NCBI GenBank assembly: GCA_018268395.1
Contig: JAFDWQ010000009.1
Span: forward strand, 248,001 to 312,000
From: Armatimonadota bacterium
GTDB taxonomy: Bacteria; Armatimonadota; Fimbriimonadia; Fimbriimonadales; Fimbriimonadaceae
Direction of reading: 5' to 3'
Length of the DNA: 64,000 bases
Positions 1 through 6,866 of the stretch are shown here, piece after piece (the first letter of the stretch is position 1; every line of letters starts with the position of its first letter). The notes below the pieces were generated by a model that was not told the DNA's origin, searched no databases, and saw only the letters and a list, made by a program, of their open reading frames with translations. The translations under genes and the position numbers were made by a program.

Positions 1-725
1 CGGAAATCGGCCTTAACGGGCACGCTTTTCAGCCCGGCCCACGCCAGGGCCGCAGCTACGATCACGAAGGGGAGCCAGACCAACGCGGCGTTCTGGAGGT
101 AGACCGGATGCGACGTCTTGTCTTTCTCCACGAACGTCTGCCCCGTCCCGATCCAAGCCATCCCGATCACGGCAGGAATGAGGAACTGCGCTACGCTCAC
201 GCCGAAGTTGCCGACGCCGGCCTGGATGCCCAGGGCCGTCCCCTGTTTCGTCTTCGGGAAGAACAGCGACGTGCTCGGCATGAACGAGCTGAAGTTGCCC
301 CCTCCGAGTCCGGCTAAAAAGGCGAGGACGAGAAAGGTCGTATACGACGTCTGAGGGTTCTGGACTGCGGCCGTCCAGCCCAGGCACGGCACGACGAGGA
401 GCACGGTCGAGAGGGCCACGGTCTTGCGTGTCCCGAACAACGGGATGAGGAAGGTATGGACGATCCGGAGCGTCCCAGCGGCCAGGCCCGGCATTGCGGT
501 CAGCCAGAACAGTTGCTGCTTGTCGAACTTGAACCCGACGCCACTCAGTTTGACGACGATGGCGCTCACCATGAACCAGGTGCTGAACGACAGGAACAAG
601 GCGAACGTCGTGAGCCAGAGCGTGCGCCACGCCAGGCGCTTCCCTTCGCCGCCCCATGCTTGGACGTCTTCTGGGTTCCAAGTCGCGGGCAATGGATCTT
701 GATGGGCCGAGGTGGTCAAGGACAA
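1..725 (-). CDS. narK: NarK-type nitrate/nitrite MFS transporter, C-terminus cut by window edge
   Basis: Inner-membrane transporter expected to import nitrate or exchange it for nitrite. The reverse strand reads as one open frame of 241 codons running off the window start. It has hydrophobic helices from about residue 33 and the stretch PSTSLFFPKTKQGTALG followed by IQAGVGNFGVSV, which matches the signature region of NarK/NasA major facilitators (roughly the first half of a 400-450 residue protein). There is no ATG. I choose TTG at 725 because AGGAG (733-737) sits seven bases upstream; a second TTG at 719 is possible. It lies next to a nitrate-reductase-like enzyme on the same strand, which supports the substrate. 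A palindrome at 774-787 lies upstream. Confidence 0.88.
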   Translation of the reverse strand, partial: MSLTTSAHQDPLPATWNPEDVQAWGGEGKRLAWRTLWLTTFALFLSFSTWFMVSAIVVKLSGVGFKFDKQQLFWLTAMPGLAAGTLRIVHTFLIPLFGTRKTVALSTVLLVVPCLGWTAAVQNPQTSYTTFLVLAFLAGLGGGNFSSFMPSTSLFFPKTKQGTALGIQAGVGNFGVSVAQFLIPAVIGMAWIGTGQTFVEKDKTSHPVYLQNAALVWLPFVIVAAALAWAGLKSVPVKADF

Positions 726-773
726 GGTCGTACTCCTGTAAGAAGATCATTGACCTCATCGTCCAGGCACGCT

Positions 774-834: not shown

Positions 835-3024
835 TTAGTCCGGTTCGGGACTGTCGGCCTTTGAGATCCGGACGACCGACTTCTTGAATTCGGGGATCTT
901 GCTCACCGGGTCAAGGGCTCGGACGGTCAGGTTGTTCGCCGACTTGCGCCCCGGCCAATGGTAGGGGATGAACACGGTGTCTGGCCGGATCGTGGTCACC
1001 ACCTTGGCCTTGAGGGTGACCGCGCCACGGCGGCTTTCGACGCGGGCCCAATCGCCGTCCTCAAGACCGTGCCGCCCGGCAAGCGTCGGATGGATCTCGA
1101 CATAGGGTTCCGGGCACAGGTCGACGAGCCCTCCGATCCGCCGCGTCTGCGTCCCGCTCAGATACTGCGTCACGATCCGTCCCGTCGTCAGGATGACGGG
1201 GTAGTCGTCGTCGGGCTCTTCGGCCGAGGGACGGTAAGGCGTCGGATGGAAGTGGGCTTTGCCGTCGGCGGTCGGAAACTTCAGGTCTTCGAAGAGCCGG
1301 GGCGTTCCGGGATGTCCGATCTCCGGGCACGGCCAGAAAACGCCCATTTCGTCGACGATCCGCTCGTACGTGATGCCGTAATAGTCGGCCGTCCCTCCTT
1401 TGCTCGCGACGCGGAGCTCGTTGAAGACGTCCTCGCTCGTCTTGAAGTGGTCGAAGAACCCGCCCCGCCCCAACCTCCGCGCGATGTCCAAGAGAATGGA
1501 CGTGTCCGTCCGCGCATCGCCGGGAGGATCGACGGCCTTATTGATCTTGATGACCCGCCCTTCTGCGCTCGTACTCGTCCCTTCTTCCTCTTCGTGCAGG
1601 GATCCCGCCAGCACGATGTCGGCATGATGGGCGGTCTCGCTCAAAAAGAAGTCGATGGCGGTGTAGTGCTCGAGACGGGACAGGGCATCGCGCGTAAAGT
1701 TCGAGTCCGGAAGTGAAACCAAAGGGTTAAAGCAAATCGAGATCAGGGCCTTGATCTCTCCGGCATGGATCCGTTCCATGATCTCCTGGGCCGAGTGGCC
1801 CTTCCGCGGCAGTTCAGGTTCCGGGATGCCCCATACACCGGCAATGTACGACCGGTGTTCCGGATTCTCAATGTCGCGGTTTCCGGGTAGCTGGTCGCAC
1901 TTGTGTCCGTGCTCGCGGCCGCCTTGTCCGTTGCCTTGTCCCGTGATCGTGCCGTATCCGCAACCCGGCCGGCCGATGCGGCCCGTCGCCAACACAAGGT
2001 TGATGCACCCGAGGACGTTGTCGACACCCTTGGTGTGGTGCTCGATCCCACGGGCGTGGAGGAGGAAGCTGGTCTTGGCCTGACCCCACAGACGTGCGGC
2101 CCGCCGGATGTCTTCGACCTCGACCCCACAGATCCGCGACGCCTCCTCCAGCGAAGTCGCCAGCGCGCTCTCTCGGGCGGCTTCGAAGCCCGTCGTGTGG
2201 TCGCGGACGAAAGCCTCGTCGACGTACCCTTCTTCGACCAGGACACGGAGCATCGCAGAGAACAGTGCGGAGTCCGTCCCGGGACGGACGGGCAGGTGGA
2301 GGTCGCACGTCCGGGCTAAGGGCGTGACCCGCGGATCGACCATGACCAGCTTCGCACCCCGGTCGCGGGCGCGCCAAATGTAGTCGGTCGTGATCGGCGA
2401 GCATTCGGCGACGTTCGTCCCCGCACACAGGATGACTTCCGCGGAAAGGATGTCGTCCCACGAATTCGCGGCCCGGTCCATCCCGAACGCCTTCTTGTTG
2501 CCTGCACCGGCGCTGACCATGCAGAGCCGACCGTTGTAATCCAGTTCTTTGGTCTGTAGGGCCACCCGCGCGAACTTGCCGACCAGGTAGCTCTTCTCGT
2601 TCGTCAGCGACACCCCCGACAGCATCGCGACCGCGTCTCTTCCGTACGCCTCCTGGACCCGCCGGATCTCGGACACCGTGGTGGAGAGCGCCTCCTGCCA
2701 GCCGATCGGAACGAAGCCTTGTCCCTCCATCCGCTTCATGGGAGCGAGCAGCCGGTCGGGATGGCTGCCCTGCAAGTAGCGTTTCACACCTTTGGGGCAG
2801 AGCTTGCCGCGGTTGAACGGGAACTCCTCCCACGGCTCGAAGCCGATGACTTTCCCGTCTTTGACTTTCAGTTGAATGCCGCACTGTTGGCCGCAGAAGC
2901 AGCAGTGCGTCTTAACGGTCTTGTCCGGGACACCTCGTCCGGTCCAGCCGCCCGGCGGCTGATGGTTGAGGTGCGGGCCGAACTTCTCGGCGAGCACGGA
3001 CACATCGACCGGCGGACGGGCCAT
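835..3024 (-). CDS. Molybdopterin oxidoreductase, nitrate reductase-like catalytic subunit
   Basis: Large molybdenum bis-MGD enzyme of the DMSO reductase superfamily, most likely reducing nitrate. In the 729-residue form the N-terminal [4Fe-4S] ligands are Cys41, Cys44, Cys48 and Cys76 (CCFCGQQC, then KLCPKG). The probable Mo ligand is Cys168 in GRLCMVSAG. The C-terminal 120 residues form the cofactor-binding domain ([17 protein letters not shown]). No Tat signal precedes the cluster, so a cytoplasmic location is likely. I start at ATG 3024 rather than the longer frame to 3102, because a -10 box CATAAT (3031-3036) lies six bases upstream and the extension has no protein-like character. Neighbours are narK, a NarI-like membrane protein and FeS/Rieske subunits. 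A formate dehydrogenase-like role cannot be excluded from sequence alone. Confidence 0.85.
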
Positions 3025-3140
3025 AGCGCTATTATGCGGCACCTTCGGGCGGTCCACGATATGACGGCTGTCATACGACGACGGACGGACGCATGACAGC
3101 ATAAAGCGGGCGAAGATGGGCTATCTTTATTCGTGAGACC
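3025..3140. promoter_or_regulatory. Divergent promoter region with palindrome copy 2 (3061-3074)
   Basis: ATGACGGCTGTCAT at 3061-3074 sits between the leftward molybdoenzyme and the rightward membrane protein. Leftwards, CATAAT at 3031-3036 is centred 34 bases from the palindrome centre and ends six bases before ATG 3024, implying a leaderless mRNA. Rightwards, CATAAA at 3100-3105 is centred 35 bases away and could serve the gene at 3141. One bound activator could therefore drive both directions. Confidence 0.5.
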
Positions 3141-4196
3141 ATGGTGACCAGCGATCAACGGCGCGATACGGCTTCCACGGCACGGGCCAAAGCGCTCGTC
3201 GCGGCCGTCCTGGCCGCCGGCGCGGTGACCGTCGCGATCGTGGTCGGTTCCGGTTGGTTCCGTCGGTTCGACCCGGCCCTCGCCGCGTACGCGTCGGCCA
3301 CCGTTTTCGCCGCGTTCGCGATCGCCTACCGCTTCGTGATGTGGGTACAACGCCCACCGACCTGGCACTATTTTACGGCGGGTCTGCGACTGTTCTTCCG
3401 ACCGGACCGCCTCGCCGCCAACCTTGTCCGCCTGGTCGTCCTGTTCTGGAACGACATCGTGGCCCAGACCTTCATCGAGAAACGGAGCACCAAACGGTGG
3501 CTCGCCCACATGTCGCTCGCCTGGGGCTGCCTGCTCGCGTTCGCGATCACGTTCCCGCTCAGTTGGGGTTGGATCCAGTTCGGCGTGGCCGCCAACGGCC
3601 ATGACTATGTCGTCGAATTCATGGGCCTTCCGACGATCGCCTTTCCTCCGGACAGCTTCCTAGCGTTCCTGTTCTTCAACGGGTTGAACATCAGCGCCGT
3701 GATGGTGCTCGTCGGAGTGGGTCTTGCCATGCACCGCCGGGTCTTCGAGAGCGGGGCTAGGGCCGTCCAGACCTTGGCCAACGACTTTATGCCCCTGTTC
3801 CTGTTGTTCTCCGTCGCGGTCACGGGCCTGATGTTGACGGCGAGCTATCGGCTGATGGGGGGTTCGCACTTTTCGTTCATCTCGCTCTTGCACGCGTTCA
3901 CCGTCATCGTCTTCCTGCTTTGGTTGCCGTTCGGGAAGTTCTTCCACGTCATCCAGCGGCCCGCTCAGATCGGAGTGGCCTACTACAAGACGGAAGGGGC
4001 CGAGGGGCCTCAGGCTGCTTGCGCCCGCAGCGGGCAGGAGTATCAGTCCCTTCTTCACCACGACGACCTCGTCAACGTCATGCGCCAGGTCGGGCAAGAC
4101 TTCGGGCCGCACCAAGACTTGAGCCCTCAGGAGAAGAGGAAGCTCGTCGCATTGAACCAAGCCGCACTGATCGACGGCGTTCCGTTCGTCGGTTAG
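3141..4196 (+). CDS. NarI/DsrM-like polytopic membrane protein of the nitrate reductase locus
   Basis: A 351-residue integral membrane protein with about six hydrophobic spans between residues 15 and 270 and a soluble C-terminal tail of about 75 residues. Histidines lie in or beside the helices (RWLAHMSLAWGC, LLHAFTVIVFLLW, KFFHVIQRP), as expected for haem b ligands in the NarI/DsrM/HdrE cytochrome b fold. It would pass electrons from quinol to the FeS/Rieske and molybdenum subunits. It is transcribed away from the molybdoenzyme across a shared control region, and its last codons overlap the end of the small membrane gene on the other strand. Haem ligation is inferred from helix-embedded histidines, not from a recognised full motif. 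Confidence 0.65.
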   Translation: MVTSDQRRDTASTARAKALVAAVLAAGAVTVAIVVGSGWFRRFDPALAAYASATVFAAFAIAYRFVMWVQRPPTWHYFTAGLRLFFRPDRLAANLVRLVVLFWNDIVAQTFIEKRSTKRWLAHMSLAWGCLLAFAITFPLSWGWIQFGVAANGHDYVVEFMGLPTIAFPPDSFLAFLFFNGLNISAVMVLVGVGLAMHRRVFESGARAVQTLANDFMPLFLLFSVAVTGLMLTASYRLMGGSHFSFISLLHAFTVIVFLLWLPFGKFFHVIQRPAQIGVAYYKTEGAEGPQAACARSGQEYQSLLHHDDLVNVMRQVGQDFGPHQDLSPQEKRKLVALNQAALIDGVPFVG

Positions 4197-4426
4197 GCGT
4201 CACGGTCGAGACGGTTCACCCCGACCATCATCCACGCGTTCACACCGAGGATCACCAAGCTCCCGAGCGCTGCCGGGACAGCGGCTCCCACCCGGTGCGC
4301 GAGCATGTTCTCGAACGCCATGACGAAGAGCCAGAGTTGAAGGAGGACGAGGACGACGCTGAAGAGCAGGAGCCCTACGAACACGGGCGCCTTCTGCGCC
4401 CGCTGAGGCTTATGCTCCGGCTTCAC
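4193..4426 (-). CDS. Small two-helix membrane protein (possibly DUF6755-like)
   Basis: A 77-residue protein with a basic, polar N-terminus ([12 protein letters not shown]) and two predicted membrane helices (about residues 14-37 and 46-68). It begins with GTG at 4426, overlapping the stop of the Rieske gene in GTGA, so it is probably translationally coupled to it. It resembles in size and layout the small membrane proteins found with Rieske/FeS/molybdoenzyme clusters. The family name is from memory and should be treated as a guess. A likely role is anchoring or assembly of the complex. Confidence 0.6.
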   Translation of the reverse strand: MKPEHKPQRAQKAPVFVGLLLFSVVLVLLQLWLFVMAFENMLAHRVGAAVPAALGSLVILGVNAWMMVGVNRLDRDA

Positions 4427-4926
4427 GCCCGCCCTCCCTCGCCACGTCGAACGCCGACGGCCCAGACCGCTCCGTCCCGTATCTCGAGCGCGATCCGCGG
4501 CAACGGTTCCGGAGGCGGGCCTTGCAGGACACGGCCGTCCTCCACCGCGAAGGCACCGTTATGGCACGGGCAGACGAGCCTCTCGGCGCTCGGGTCGAAG
4601 TCGACCGGACAAGAGAGGTGGGTACAGCGGCGGGAATAGGCCGCGAACTCGCCTGTACGCCTTCGGATCAAGATGCAGACGTCCTTGTCTCCCGGATAGG
4701 CGAAAGCCACCGAACTACCGGGGGGCACGTCGTCCACGGACGCGATTTTGAGGGGACGGTGCTCCTCGGGCTTCATGGGCAGCGACGTGACGAGGGCGAC
4801 CGCCGAAGTCCCGACGGCCAGGCCGCCGCTGGCGAGCGTCATGAAACGGAAGAACTCGCGACGGGACACGTAAGAGTCGTCGTCCCAATCGATCGGAAAC
4901 TCAGATGCCAAGCGTTCGTCTTTCAT
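4423..4926 (-). CDS. Rieske [2Fe-2S] protein of the nitrate reductase complex
   Basis: A 167-residue protein with an N-terminal SRREFF twin-arginine-like motif (residues 21-26) followed by a hydrophobic helix to about residue 49, so it is probably a Tat-exported, membrane-anchored subunit. The Rieske ligands are Cys101/His103 (CTHLSC) and Cys119/His122 (CPCH). Cys106 and Cys121 are also present, so the cluster-stabilising disulphide of high-potential Rieske proteins can form. The ATG at 4926 overlaps the stop of the upstream FeS gene (ATGA), and its own stop overlaps the next start, giving a tight three-gene operon. The export signal contrasts with the signal-less molybdoenzyme, which raises the question of topology. 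Confidence 0.88.
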
Positions 4927-5522
4927 CGGATCCTCGCACTCTCGAGCAGGTCGGTCTTGCGGACGAGGACGCCTGTCTTCACGTCCAACCGCGCGTGCCC
5001 GGCGGGCATCATCAGGCTGACCTTGGTCGTGACGACCTTGCCGCCGAACCGGAACTCGTTGACGGGCGTCCCGCCGCGCTGCGCGGCGATCTCCTCGGCC
5101 GTACCGAAGAACAGGGCTTGTGACGGGCACACCGTCGCGCACATCGGCTTCTTACCGACGGAGGTGCGGTCGTAGCACATGTCGCACTTCATCATTTGGT
5201 CGATCTGCGCGTCGTACTTCGGCACACCGAAGGGACAGGCGAACACACAGTTCGTACATCCGATGCACCTGGGTTTCAGAGAGCTTTGGACGACACCGTC
5301 CGGTGTCCGTTTGATCGCGTCCGCCGGGCAAACGGCGGCGCACGCGGGATCGTCGCAGTGCATGCAGACGACCGGGGTCGTCTGCACGGTGTCGCCCCGC
5401 GCGACCGTCTCCAGATGGATCATCGAAACGCCGGCGTGCGTGTCGCACTCGGCGCACGCTGCCACGCAAGCGTTGCATCCGATACACCGGCTCGGATCGA
5501 TGTAGAACCTTTTCTCCATCAT
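4923..5522 (-). CDS. Four-cluster ferredoxin-type electron transfer subunit (DmsB/NrfC/HybA family)
   Basis: A 199-residue FeS protein with sixteen cysteines in four ferredoxin motifs: Cys13/16/19/23, Cys53/56/61/65, Cys86/89/92/96 and Cys113/116/128/132, enough for four [4Fe-4S] clusters. Such subunits connect a molybdoenzyme to a quinol-oxidising membrane partner. There is no signal peptide. I choose ATG 5522 (MMEKRF) because CATACT (5529-5534) ends six bases upstream; a longer frame to 5630 adds 36 residues with no recognisable character. First gene of the operon FeS-Rieske-small membrane protein. Confidence 0.85.
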
Positions 5523-5747
5523 ACGTTCAGTATGCAACGGGCACCCTGCACTCGGGTTCGTAAGGAACCGACGCGGCTCAGGACTCCCTTCTTCGTCAGC
5601 GCGACCTCGCCCACCGAAGACAGTGTCCACCGTGCGCCGGGGTCACGACATGACGACCGTCATAGGCCCGGACCACAGCGGCCAAGGCTTATCGCACCGA
5701 TCCGATAACGGGCCGTACCGTCTGGTCCAGGATTCAGCCGGTGTGAA
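5523..5747. promoter_or_regulatory. Intergenic region with palindrome copy 3 (5650-5663)
   Basis: ATGACGACCGTCAT at 5650-5663 is the third copy of the ATGACGNCNGTCAT element. At class II spacing the minus-strand -10 would fall near 5622-5627 (GACACT, weak), giving a leader of about 90 bases. A separate box CATACT at 5529-5534 lies right before ATG 5522. Nothing else is recognisable here. Confidence 0.5.
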
Positions 5748-6866
5748 TCAGGGCGTGACGATCCAACCGACCTGATCGTGCTCTGAACACCACAGGGCCA
5801 CGCTGGCGATGCCGGTCTGACGGATGCGGTAGCGCGCTCGCAGGGCGTCTTGACCTTGGAAATACCGCGAGACGTCGCCCGTCGCGTCGAGCTTACGCGG
5901 CACGAAGGACGTACCGATCGGATCGGTCCGGACGTCACCGCCGGCATAACCGGACCCTGCAAAGTCGTACATCTCGAGGGTCTGGCTGAACTGGCCCGAG
6001 TTCGCCATTCTGCCGACGCTCCAGAGCGAGAGGTACTGCGGCACTTGGCCGTTCGCGGTGAACTCGACGTTGATCGGCGCCGCGTTGGCGTTGGGGACGA
6101 GGTACTTGCAGACCATCAAGGCGTCGCCGTCGAGTTCCCGCAAGCTCGCCGTGGTCCCCGATCCCAGTTTGCCGAGCGCGACGTTGAACCCGGTCGGACG
6201 GATCAAGTGCGCCGGCACTTGGCCCGACTGGTCGATGCCCGTCACGTCGACCCGGAGCGACCGGACTTTGAAGAGCGGCGACACGATGTAGCCCGAGACT
6301 TGGGCCGGGACTGCGGAGACGGTGCTGCCCCCTCCGGACGGATCGTCGTCGAGCTGGACGTCGCACAGTTCGCCCAAGACCGGATTCACCCAAGGGAGCG
6401 TCACCGAGTTGGAAGCTTGCGAATCGAGTTTGGCCGTGACGTGGACGTTTTGGACCGTGATGTCGACGTCGATGCCGTTGTAGACGCCTTGGATGTGGTA
6501 GGGGCCGGGAAGCACCGTGTCGGCCACGTGCCGCAACCGGTCGGAACCCAAGTCGGTACCCGCCAGCGTGACCGGGTCCGGAGGCAGGTTGACATCGAAG
6601 TCCGAGAGCTTGATCGTGAAGTCCAAACTGCCGGCCGCCTTGTCGCTCCTCGCTTCGGGCGTCGTCGTCGGCGAAGTGAACGACTGGTCTCCGAGGAAGT
6701 CCGCCTTGACAAGGATCGTGACCGTCGCGTCGAGGTTCCCATACCGGGCTTCGGCAGAACCGAAGCAGAACGTGAACCGGTCGGCCCCACGGAACCGCTC
6801 GACGGGCTGTCCGGCATGAGCGGCGGCGGCGGCCGCCGCGAGCGTGAACAAGACGATGTGCTTCAA
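5748..6866 (-). CDS. Secreted protein of unknown function
   Basis: A 372-residue protein with a Sec-type signal peptide (short basic start, hydrophobic stretch to about residue 16, AHAG cleavage region). The rest is beta-rich and low in charge, with many Asp/Gly/Thr turns and few Lys. It has no PEP-CTERM tail and no motif I recognise. The start is TTG at 6866, supported by GGAGAGG five to ten bases upstream. The C-terminal half contains two cysteines (MVCKYL, LWCSEH) besides one near the N-terminus, so disulphides are possible. It stands alone between the nitrate operon and the lipid operon. Function unknown. Confidence 0.75.
   Translation of the reverse strand: MKHIVLFTLAAAAAAAHAGQPVERFRGADRFTFCFGSAEARYGNLDATVTILVKADFLGDQSFTSPTTTPEARSDKAAGSLDFTIKLSDFDVNLPPDPVTLAGTDLGSDRLRHVADTVLPGPYHIQGVYNGIDVDITVQNVHVTAKLDSQASNSVTLPWVNPVLGELCDVQLDDDPSGGGSTVSAVPAQVSGYIVSPLFKVRSLRVDVTGIDQSGQVPAHLIRPTGFNVALGKLGSGTTASLRELDGDALMVCKYLVPNANAAPINVEFTANGQVPQYLSLWSVGRMANSGQFSQTLEMYDFAGSGYAGGDVRTDPIGTSFVPRKLDATGDVSRYFQGQDALRARYRIRQTGIASVALWCSEHDQVGWIVTP

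What the first reader, a model, noticed from the sequence alone, without database searches (positions are those of the whole stretch)
835..5522. Nitrate-reductase-like complex that includes a high-potential Rieske protein
The set is molybdoenzyme, four-cluster FeS subunit, Rieske subunit with both disulphide cysteines, two-helix small protein and a NarI/DsrM-like cytochrome. Classical Nar, Nap and Nas systems do not carry a Rieske protein. The molybdoenzyme and FeS subunit lack export signals but the Rieske protein has a twin-arginine-like motif, so the topology and electron path are unclear and may represent a distinct class of respiratory or assimilatory nitrate reductase.
Basis: partly seen in the sequence, partly recalled or inferred. 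Interest (0 to 1): 0.65.

Follow-up and report, generated by a model that had tools for sequence, protein, structure and literature searches.

The report
Quinol-linked Nas-type nitrate reductase with Rieske
A little-known bacterial enzyme set appears to let cells use nitrate as a respiratory electron acceptor by joining the catalytic protein normally used for nitrate assimilation to a membrane cytochrome, an iron-sulphur wire and a Rieske protein, a combination I found no description of in the literature I could search.

Summary
Window 835-5522 encodes a Nas-type molybdoenzyme, a 16-Cys four-cluster FeS protein, a Tat-type Rieske protein, DUF6755 and a NarI/QmoC-like cytochrome b (the last on the opposite strand). 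A NarK nitrate transporter follows the molybdoenzyme and runs off the window's left edge. The set recurs in Armatimonadota, Acidobacteriota and Deinococcus, often as one operon. In three Acidobacteriota the cytochrome is fused to NarK. Among 41 related genomes the molybdoenzyme and Rieske occur in the same 15, and the cytochrome in 14 of those. The molybdoenzyme is a fully supported sister clade of assimilatory NasC, with nitrate-type Cys-Met (not formate-type Cys/Sec-His) at the active site. No carrier among those 41 has a sirohaem nitrite reductase; another genome carries this set and a separate nasC-narK-nirBD cluster. Best reading: a quinol-linked, cytoplasm-facing dissimilatory nitrate reductase, working like NarGHI but built on a Nas subunit. 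Corrections: Rieske proteins do occur with haloarchaeal Nar and some Nap, and 'high potential' is doubtful because the Ser and Tyr that raise the potential are replaced. The role of the Rieske is unproven.

The parts
1..725 (-). NarK-family nitrate/nitrite transporter, cut by the left edge of the window (ORF is window -612..746; exact start uncertain)
   Evidence: TIGR00886 309.8 bits at G000:C9:247538-248626; ORF read in L007
835..3021 (-). Nas-type molybdenum-bisPGD catalytic subunit, no signal peptide, about 38-aa clade-specific N-terminal extension before CCFCGQQC
   Evidence: NasC NF047855 823 bits (cut-off 1100), Fdh-alpha 583 (cut-off 666); RLCMVSAG motif; trees; N-terminal extension
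3141..4196 (+). Membrane cytochrome b, NarI/QmoC/EtfD-like, three invariant membrane histidines (H123, H251, H269)
   Evidence: QmoC 40 bits; invariant residues; AlphaFold pLDDT 87.7; Foldseek EtfD and NarI, prob 0.98-1.00, E 0.02-0.19; H251/H269 align with the two His of the NarI helix ending PFSRLIH
4193..4426 (-). DUF6755 two-helix membrane protein, starts by GTGA overlap with the Rieske gene
   Evidence: PF20540 86 bits; two hydrophobic segments; distribution
4423..4926 (-). Rieske [2Fe-2S] protein with twin-arginine N-terminal membrane segment; four ligands and two disulphide Cys; CPCHNGAF box
   Evidence: PF00355; alignment of 30 members with invariant R22 R23 and C101 H103 C106 C119 C121 H122
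4923..5522 (-). Four-[4Fe-4S] ferredoxin-like subunit (NarH/DmsB/HybA type), 16 cluster cysteines, no signal peptide
   Evidence: Fer4_11; DmsB family 110 bits; all 16 Cys conserved
3022..3140 (.). Divergent intergenic region between the catalytic and cytochrome genes; no FNR-like box found

Best explanation
The genes encode a membrane-bound, quinol-dependent, dissimilatory nitrate reductase whose active site faces the cytoplasm. NarK imports nitrate (and probably exports nitrite). Menaquinol is oxidised in the membrane by the NarI/QmoC-like cytochrome b together with the outward-facing, Tat-exported Rieske protein. Electrons pass from haem b to the four-[4Fe-4S] subunit, then to the [4Fe-4S] cluster and Mo-bisPGD of the Nas-type catalytic subunit, which reduces nitrate to nitrite. 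DUF6755 probably helps anchor the Rieske protein or cytochrome. It works like NarGHI but uses a catalytic subunit from the Nas family. Shown by sequence and comparison: the parts, their conserved motifs, co-occurrence, link to NarK, catalytic-subunit phylogeny, absence of sirohaem nitrite reductase in carriers. Inferred: nitrate as substrate, quinol as donor, electron path, Rieske role.
For: Catalytic subunit: all set members aligned read [10 protein letters not shown], the Cys-Met of Nas/Nap, where formate dehydrogenases have Cys/Sec-His; sister to NasC-type enzymes encoded beside nirB. Nitrate link: NarK beside the genes here, in 21 of 50 loci, directly downstream in four Deinococcus plasmids, and fused in frame to the cytochrome in three Acidobacteriota (L062, L069, L064; TIGR00886 147-241 bits plus QmoC-like domain). 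Electron chain: 16-Cys FeS subunit and cytochrome with NarI-like H-x17-H. Functional unit: Rieske (>=235 bits) in exactly the 15 genomes with the catalytic subunit; cytochrome in 14 of the 15 and in 0 of 26 others, even when unlinked (Fisher 4e-10, relatedness not corrected). Dissimilatory: NIR_SIR in none of the 15 carriers; NrfA in only 3; NirK none over cut-off; neighbours include Crp/Fnr, NnrS, FeS-repair RIC and Mo-cofactor genes. Five-gene operon on one strand in Deinococcus; cyt-nasC-fes-rieske in Acidobacteriota.
Against: No biochemistry exists for any member that I could find. The cytochrome has three invariant membrane His where NarI has four ligands, so a NarI-style two-haem path is not assured. 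Foldseek E-values for the cytochrome are weak (best 0.02). One carrier (G008) has no detectable cytochrome. Fimbriimonas ginsengisoli, a probable carrier, is reported not to grow anaerobically (PMC4072686), so nitrate reduction may serve redox balance rather than growth. A second NarK-associated molybdoenzyme cluster next door could be the main nitrate reductase in this genome.
Confidence: 0.72

Rival explanations
1. Assimilatory nitrate reductase that draws electrons from the quinone pool instead of NADH or ferredoxin; nitrite then goes to ammonium for biosynthesis.
For: Closest catalytic relatives are assimilatory NasC; the catalytic subunit is cytoplasmic; this genome also has NrfA at C5:284563 which could make ammonium.
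Against: No NIR_SIR nitrite reductase in any of the 15 carriers among 41 relatives, although the same search rings in 11 of 14 control genomes; 12 of 15 carriers also lack NrfA. G183 has both a nasC-narK-nirB-nirD cluster and this set. No nirB/nirD beside the Deinococcus operons.
Confidence: 0.1
2. Formate dehydrogenase (or another oxidase) feeding electrons into quinone, the complex running in the opposite direction.
For: Second-best family is Fdh-alpha (583 of 666 bits); best solved-structure matches are formate dehydrogenases; four-cluster FeS plus cytochrome b is also the FdnGHI plan.
Against: Active-site Cys is followed by Met, not by His as in the formate dehydrogenases aligned, in every member; the clade is sister to NasC, with formate dehydrogenases outside (100/100); NarK next door or fused to the cytochrome.
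Confidence: 0.06
3. The nitrate reductase is real, but the Rieske and DUF6755 proteins are side parts: the Rieske protein takes electrons from or gives them to periplasmic cytochromes, or serves assembly, rather than being a step in the quinol-to-nitrate path.
For: The Rieske is closest to arsenite-oxidase and Thermus/b6f Rieske proteins; in haloarchaeal Nar and Caldithrix Nap the Rieske partners a bc-type cytochrome b, which this set lacks; the cytochrome gene is sometimes unlinked while fes-rieske-DUF6755 stay together.
Against: Rieske and FeS genes are overlapping neighbours in nearly all loci and the Rieske co-occurs perfectly with the catalytic subunit, so it belongs to the complex in some role.
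Confidence: 0.3

Closest known systems
NasC-type assimilatory nitrate reductase (Bacillus/Actinobacteria NasC, NF047855)
   Same: Catalytic subunit homologous over its length, cytoplasmic, Cys-Met at the Mo site; sister clade
   Different: No nirB/nirD neighbours; about 38-aa extra N-terminal extension; encoded with a four-cluster FeS subunit, cytochrome b, Rieske and DUF6755. A published survey states that no member of the Nas/Nap/Aio/cytoplasmic-Fdh clade is associated with four-[4Fe-4S] or membrane-anchor subunits (PMC7331816)
NarGHI membrane nitrate reductase
   Same: Same plan: cytoplasmic Mo subunit, four-cluster FeS subunit, NarI-like cytochrome b, NarK transporter
   Different: Catalytic subunit is Nas-type with Cys ligand (NarG only 56 bits); Rieske and DUF6755 present; three instead of four invariant His in the cytochrome
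Haloarchaeal Nar (narB Rieske, narC cytochrome b, narGH)
   Same: A Rieske protein and a cytochrome b encoded with a nitrate reductase (PMC2483277)
   Different: NarG-type catalytic subunit and 486-aa cytochrome b in haloarchaea; here Nas-type and NarI/QmoC-like
Nap clusters with Rieske/cytochrome b (Caldithrix)
   Different: NapA is periplasmic and works with NapM/NapGH; here the catalytic subunit has no export signal and groups away from NapA
Arsenite oxidase AioAB
   Same: Mo enzyme plus Tat-type Rieske; AioB is the nearest solved relative of this Rieske
   Different: AioA lacks the Cys ligand and both Aio subunits are periplasmic; no FeS or cytochrome b subunit

Membership tests
Assimilatory NasC (NF047855) | Catalytic subunit scores over the curated equivalog cut-off | tested here: not met
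   823 against 1100 bits
Assimilatory NasC (NF047855) | Falls inside the NasC clade | tested here: not met
   Set is its own clade (100/100), sister to the NasC-type clade (96/92)
Assimilatory NasC (NF047855) | Works with sirohaem nitrite reductase for assimilation | tested here: not met
   NIR_SIR absent from all 15 carriers
NarGHI | NarG-type catalytic subunit of about 1200 aa | tested here: not met
   narG TIGR01580 only 56 bits; 729 aa; Cys motif
NarGHI | Four-cluster FeS subunit | tested here: met
   16 cluster Cys conserved in 53 sequences
NarGHI | NarI cytochrome with four haem-ligand His | tested here: not met
   Three invariant membrane His; fold match to NarI weak, prob 0.98-0.99 but E 0.1-0.2
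NarGHI | Quinol:nitrate oxidoreductase activity | not testable with these tools
   Needs membranes or purified enzyme
NapA | Tat signal and NapA clade | tested here: not met
   No signal peptide; groups away from NapA
Formate dehydrogenase alpha | Sec/Cys-His at the Mo site | tested here: not met
   Cys-Met in all members; 583 of 666 bits
bc-type Rieske protein | Two Cys and two His ligands with two disulphide Cys | tested here: met
   Invariant in 30 members
bc-type Rieske protein | High-potential box HGSxY (Ser and Tyr hydrogen bonds) | tested here: not met
   CPCHNGAF or CPCHEG(F/Y)F in all members aligned

The most novel reading that the evidence does not exclude
A further class of respiratory nitrate reductase, beside Nar and Nap, that arose by recruiting a Nas-type catalytic subunit to a quinol-oxidising membrane module. 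In it an outward Rieske cluster takes the place of the distal haem b: the position ten residues after H123, where NarI has its second helix-II ligand (recalled), is an invariant Ala133. The nitrate transporter is sometimes fused to the cytochrome.
Probability: 0.35. Interest if true: 0.78.

Novelty: new variant of a known kind. Interest (0 to 1): 0.62.

Why it matters
Nas-type catalytic subunits are annotated as assimilatory by default and are counted that way in metagenome surveys. A published survey says that none of this clade has the four-cluster FeS or membrane-anchor subunits (PMC7331816). If this set is respiratory, nitrate respiration in Armatimonadota, Acidobacteriota and some Deinococcus is being miscounted, and the origin of quinol-linked nitrate reduction must include a second recruitment event. 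Deinococcus plasmids carry the whole operon in cultured strains, so it can be tested directly.

Tried and rejected
Formate dehydrogenase, NapA, NarG and arsenite oxidase identities were tested and rejected by motif and tree. FNR-like boxes: none near the genes, and window total at chance level. Inverted repeats in 3000-5800: one chance palindrome. Sequence search of the cytochrome against solved structures: nothing with a single sequence, only weak NarI with a profile. Foldseek gave no E below 0.001; NarI and EtfD are named on probability, not on E-value. NirS/NirK hits in relatives were weak or below cut-off and discounted. One family scan failed on a wrong frame. Literature: no paper in the held library mentions DUF6755, and none combined the terms for this set; subscription papers are not covered.

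Full report
WHAT IS THERE. A NarK-family transporter follows the catalytic gene on the same strand and is cut by the window edge (window -612 to about 725). The window is G000:C9:248001-312000 of a 3.7-Mb genome whose nearest relatives are Fimbriimonadales, Armatimonadota.

CATALYTIC SUBUNIT. The best families are NasC (823 bits, cut-off 1100) and Fdh-alpha (583, cut-off 666). The Mo-site motif is [10 protein letters not shown] in all members aligned there. Nas and Nap references have Cys-Met at that place (one Curtobacterium reference Cys-Thr), while formate dehydrogenases have Cys/Sec-His. In a 42-row IQ-TREE analysis the set is one clade (100/100), sister to NasC-type enzymes (96/92), the pair supported 100/100, with formate dehydrogenases, NapA and NarB-type Nas outside (a larger quick tree agrees on the clade). 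It has no export signal but a conserved extension of about 38 residues, MA(K/R)xP...FGP...GG...THCCFCG, absent from the assimilatory relatives inspected.

FES, RIESKE, CYTOCHROME, SMALL PROTEIN. The FeS protein conserves all 16 Cys for four [4Fe-4S] clusters. The Rieske protein has an invariant twin-arginine followed by one hydrophobic segment, so by analogy with known Tat-dependent Rieske proteins its domain is outside. Ligands and disulphide cysteines are invariant, but the HGSxY box reads HNGAF or HEG(F/Y)F. From established mutational work on bc1 Rieske proteins (recalled, not tested here), loss of the Ser and Tyr hydrogen bonds lowers the potential, so 'high potential' is not secure. The cytochrome is QmoC/DsrM/TcuB-like by sequence. 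Its AlphaFold model (pLDDT 87.7) matches EtfD and NarI by fold, with high probability but weak E-values. H251 and H269 align with the two His of the NarI helix ending PFSRLIH. Only one further membrane His, H123, is invariant. From helix order and the positive-inside rule I infer that H123 and H269 hold the haem nearest the cytoplasm and that the distal site lacks its second His; this is inference, since model coordinates could not be read.

THE SET IS A UNIT. A Rieske-based scan found about 50 loci. Gene order varies in Armatimonadota, but in Acidobacteriota the order is cyt-nasC-fes-rieske, and in four Deinococcus plasmids it is cyt-nasC-fes-rieske-DUF6755-narK on one strand. In three Acidobacteriota NarK and the cytochrome are one reading frame. 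Among 41 relatives the catalytic subunit and the set Rieske occur in the same 15 genomes; the cytochrome is in 14 of these and in none of the other 26, even when on another contig. Fisher's p is 4e-10, without correction for relatedness. In Armatimonadota overall, 68 of 291 genomes match the catalytic subunit at E<=1e-200; matches of 58% identity or more look like the set, while those of about 48-50% include ordinary NasC beside nirB.

DISSIMILATORY RATHER THAN ASSIMILATORY. NIR_SIR is absent from all 15 carriers while ringing in 11 of 14 control genomes. NrfA is in 3 of 15, including this genome, and no NirK is over cut-off. Neighbours across loci are NarK, Crp/Fnr, NnrS, RIC and Mo-cofactor genes. 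G183 holds nasC-narK-nirB-nirD at 1.08 Mb and, separately, the full set with narK at 3.51 Mb.

MECHANISM. Most likely menaquinol -> cytochrome b (with Rieske) -> four [4Fe-4S] -> [4Fe-4S] -> Mo -> nitrate, in the cytoplasm, with NarK for nitrate entry and nitrite exit. The place of the Rieske protein in this path is the weakest step.

COMPARISON AND NOVELTY. It works like NarGHI, but its catalytic subunit fails NarG, NapA and Fdh tests and lies outside the NasC clade. Wells et al. state that no member of the Nas/Nap/Aio/cytoplasmic-Fdh clade is associated with four-cluster or membrane-anchor subunits (PMC7331816); this set contradicts that. Rieske proteins with nitrate reductases are not unprecedented: haloarchaeal Nar (PMC2483277) and Caldithrix Nap (PMC5317091). 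I found no paper describing this set in the held library, which lacks most subscription papers. I rate it a new variant of a known kind.

LIMITS. All functional claims are inferred. The phylogenetic profile covers 41 genomes of one order. The reference rows of the tree are mostly plasmid-borne, because that was the annotated collection that could be searched by protein.

Noticed in passing
G000:C9:238323-245836 (L006 10323-17998), about 2-10 kb left of the window: A second Rieske-bearing molybdoenzyme cluster: DMSO-II/PcrA/NarG-like enzyme (probable Asp ligand) without signal peptide, four-cluster FeS subunit, cytochrome c fused to a QmoC-like domain, b6f-type Rieske, full-length cytochrome b and a NarK. 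Present in 14 of 41 relatives, 8 of which also carry the Nas-type set.
   Followed up: partly
L062:2873-5137, L069:2891-5137, L064:1-1902: NarK transporter fused in frame to the cytochrome b of the set in Acidobacteriota; related cytochromes in Deinococcus are annotated 'MFS transporter', perhaps because of such fusions.
   Followed up: yes
Cytochrome C-termini, e.g. L058, L060, L067, L108: Many cytochromes outside Fimbriimonadia carry a C-terminal CxxC...CxxC domain (rubredoxin or zinc-ribbon-like); in the window's own protein only one of these Cys remains.
   Followed up: no
L074, L078, L083, L086, L093, L100, L101: In Planctomycetota a Rieske gene lies about 2-4 kb from a gene that groups with NapA, another Rieske and nitrate-reductase neighbourhood.
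   Followed up: partly
L027 (labelled Methanoregulaceae), L030 (labelled Planctomycetaceae): Set genes about as close to the window as Fimbriimonad sequences are, under unrelated taxon labels; probably misbinned contigs.
   Followed up: no
G000:C5:284563-285777: NrfA-type cytochrome c nitrite reductase (500 bits) in this genome, far from the nitrate reductase genes.
   Followed up: no
L108-L111 (Deinococcus plasmids): FmdE-family proteins, a second NarK and a GAF-domain or BTAD-type regulator flank the Deinococcus operons; possibly Mo-related or regulatory.
   Followed up: no
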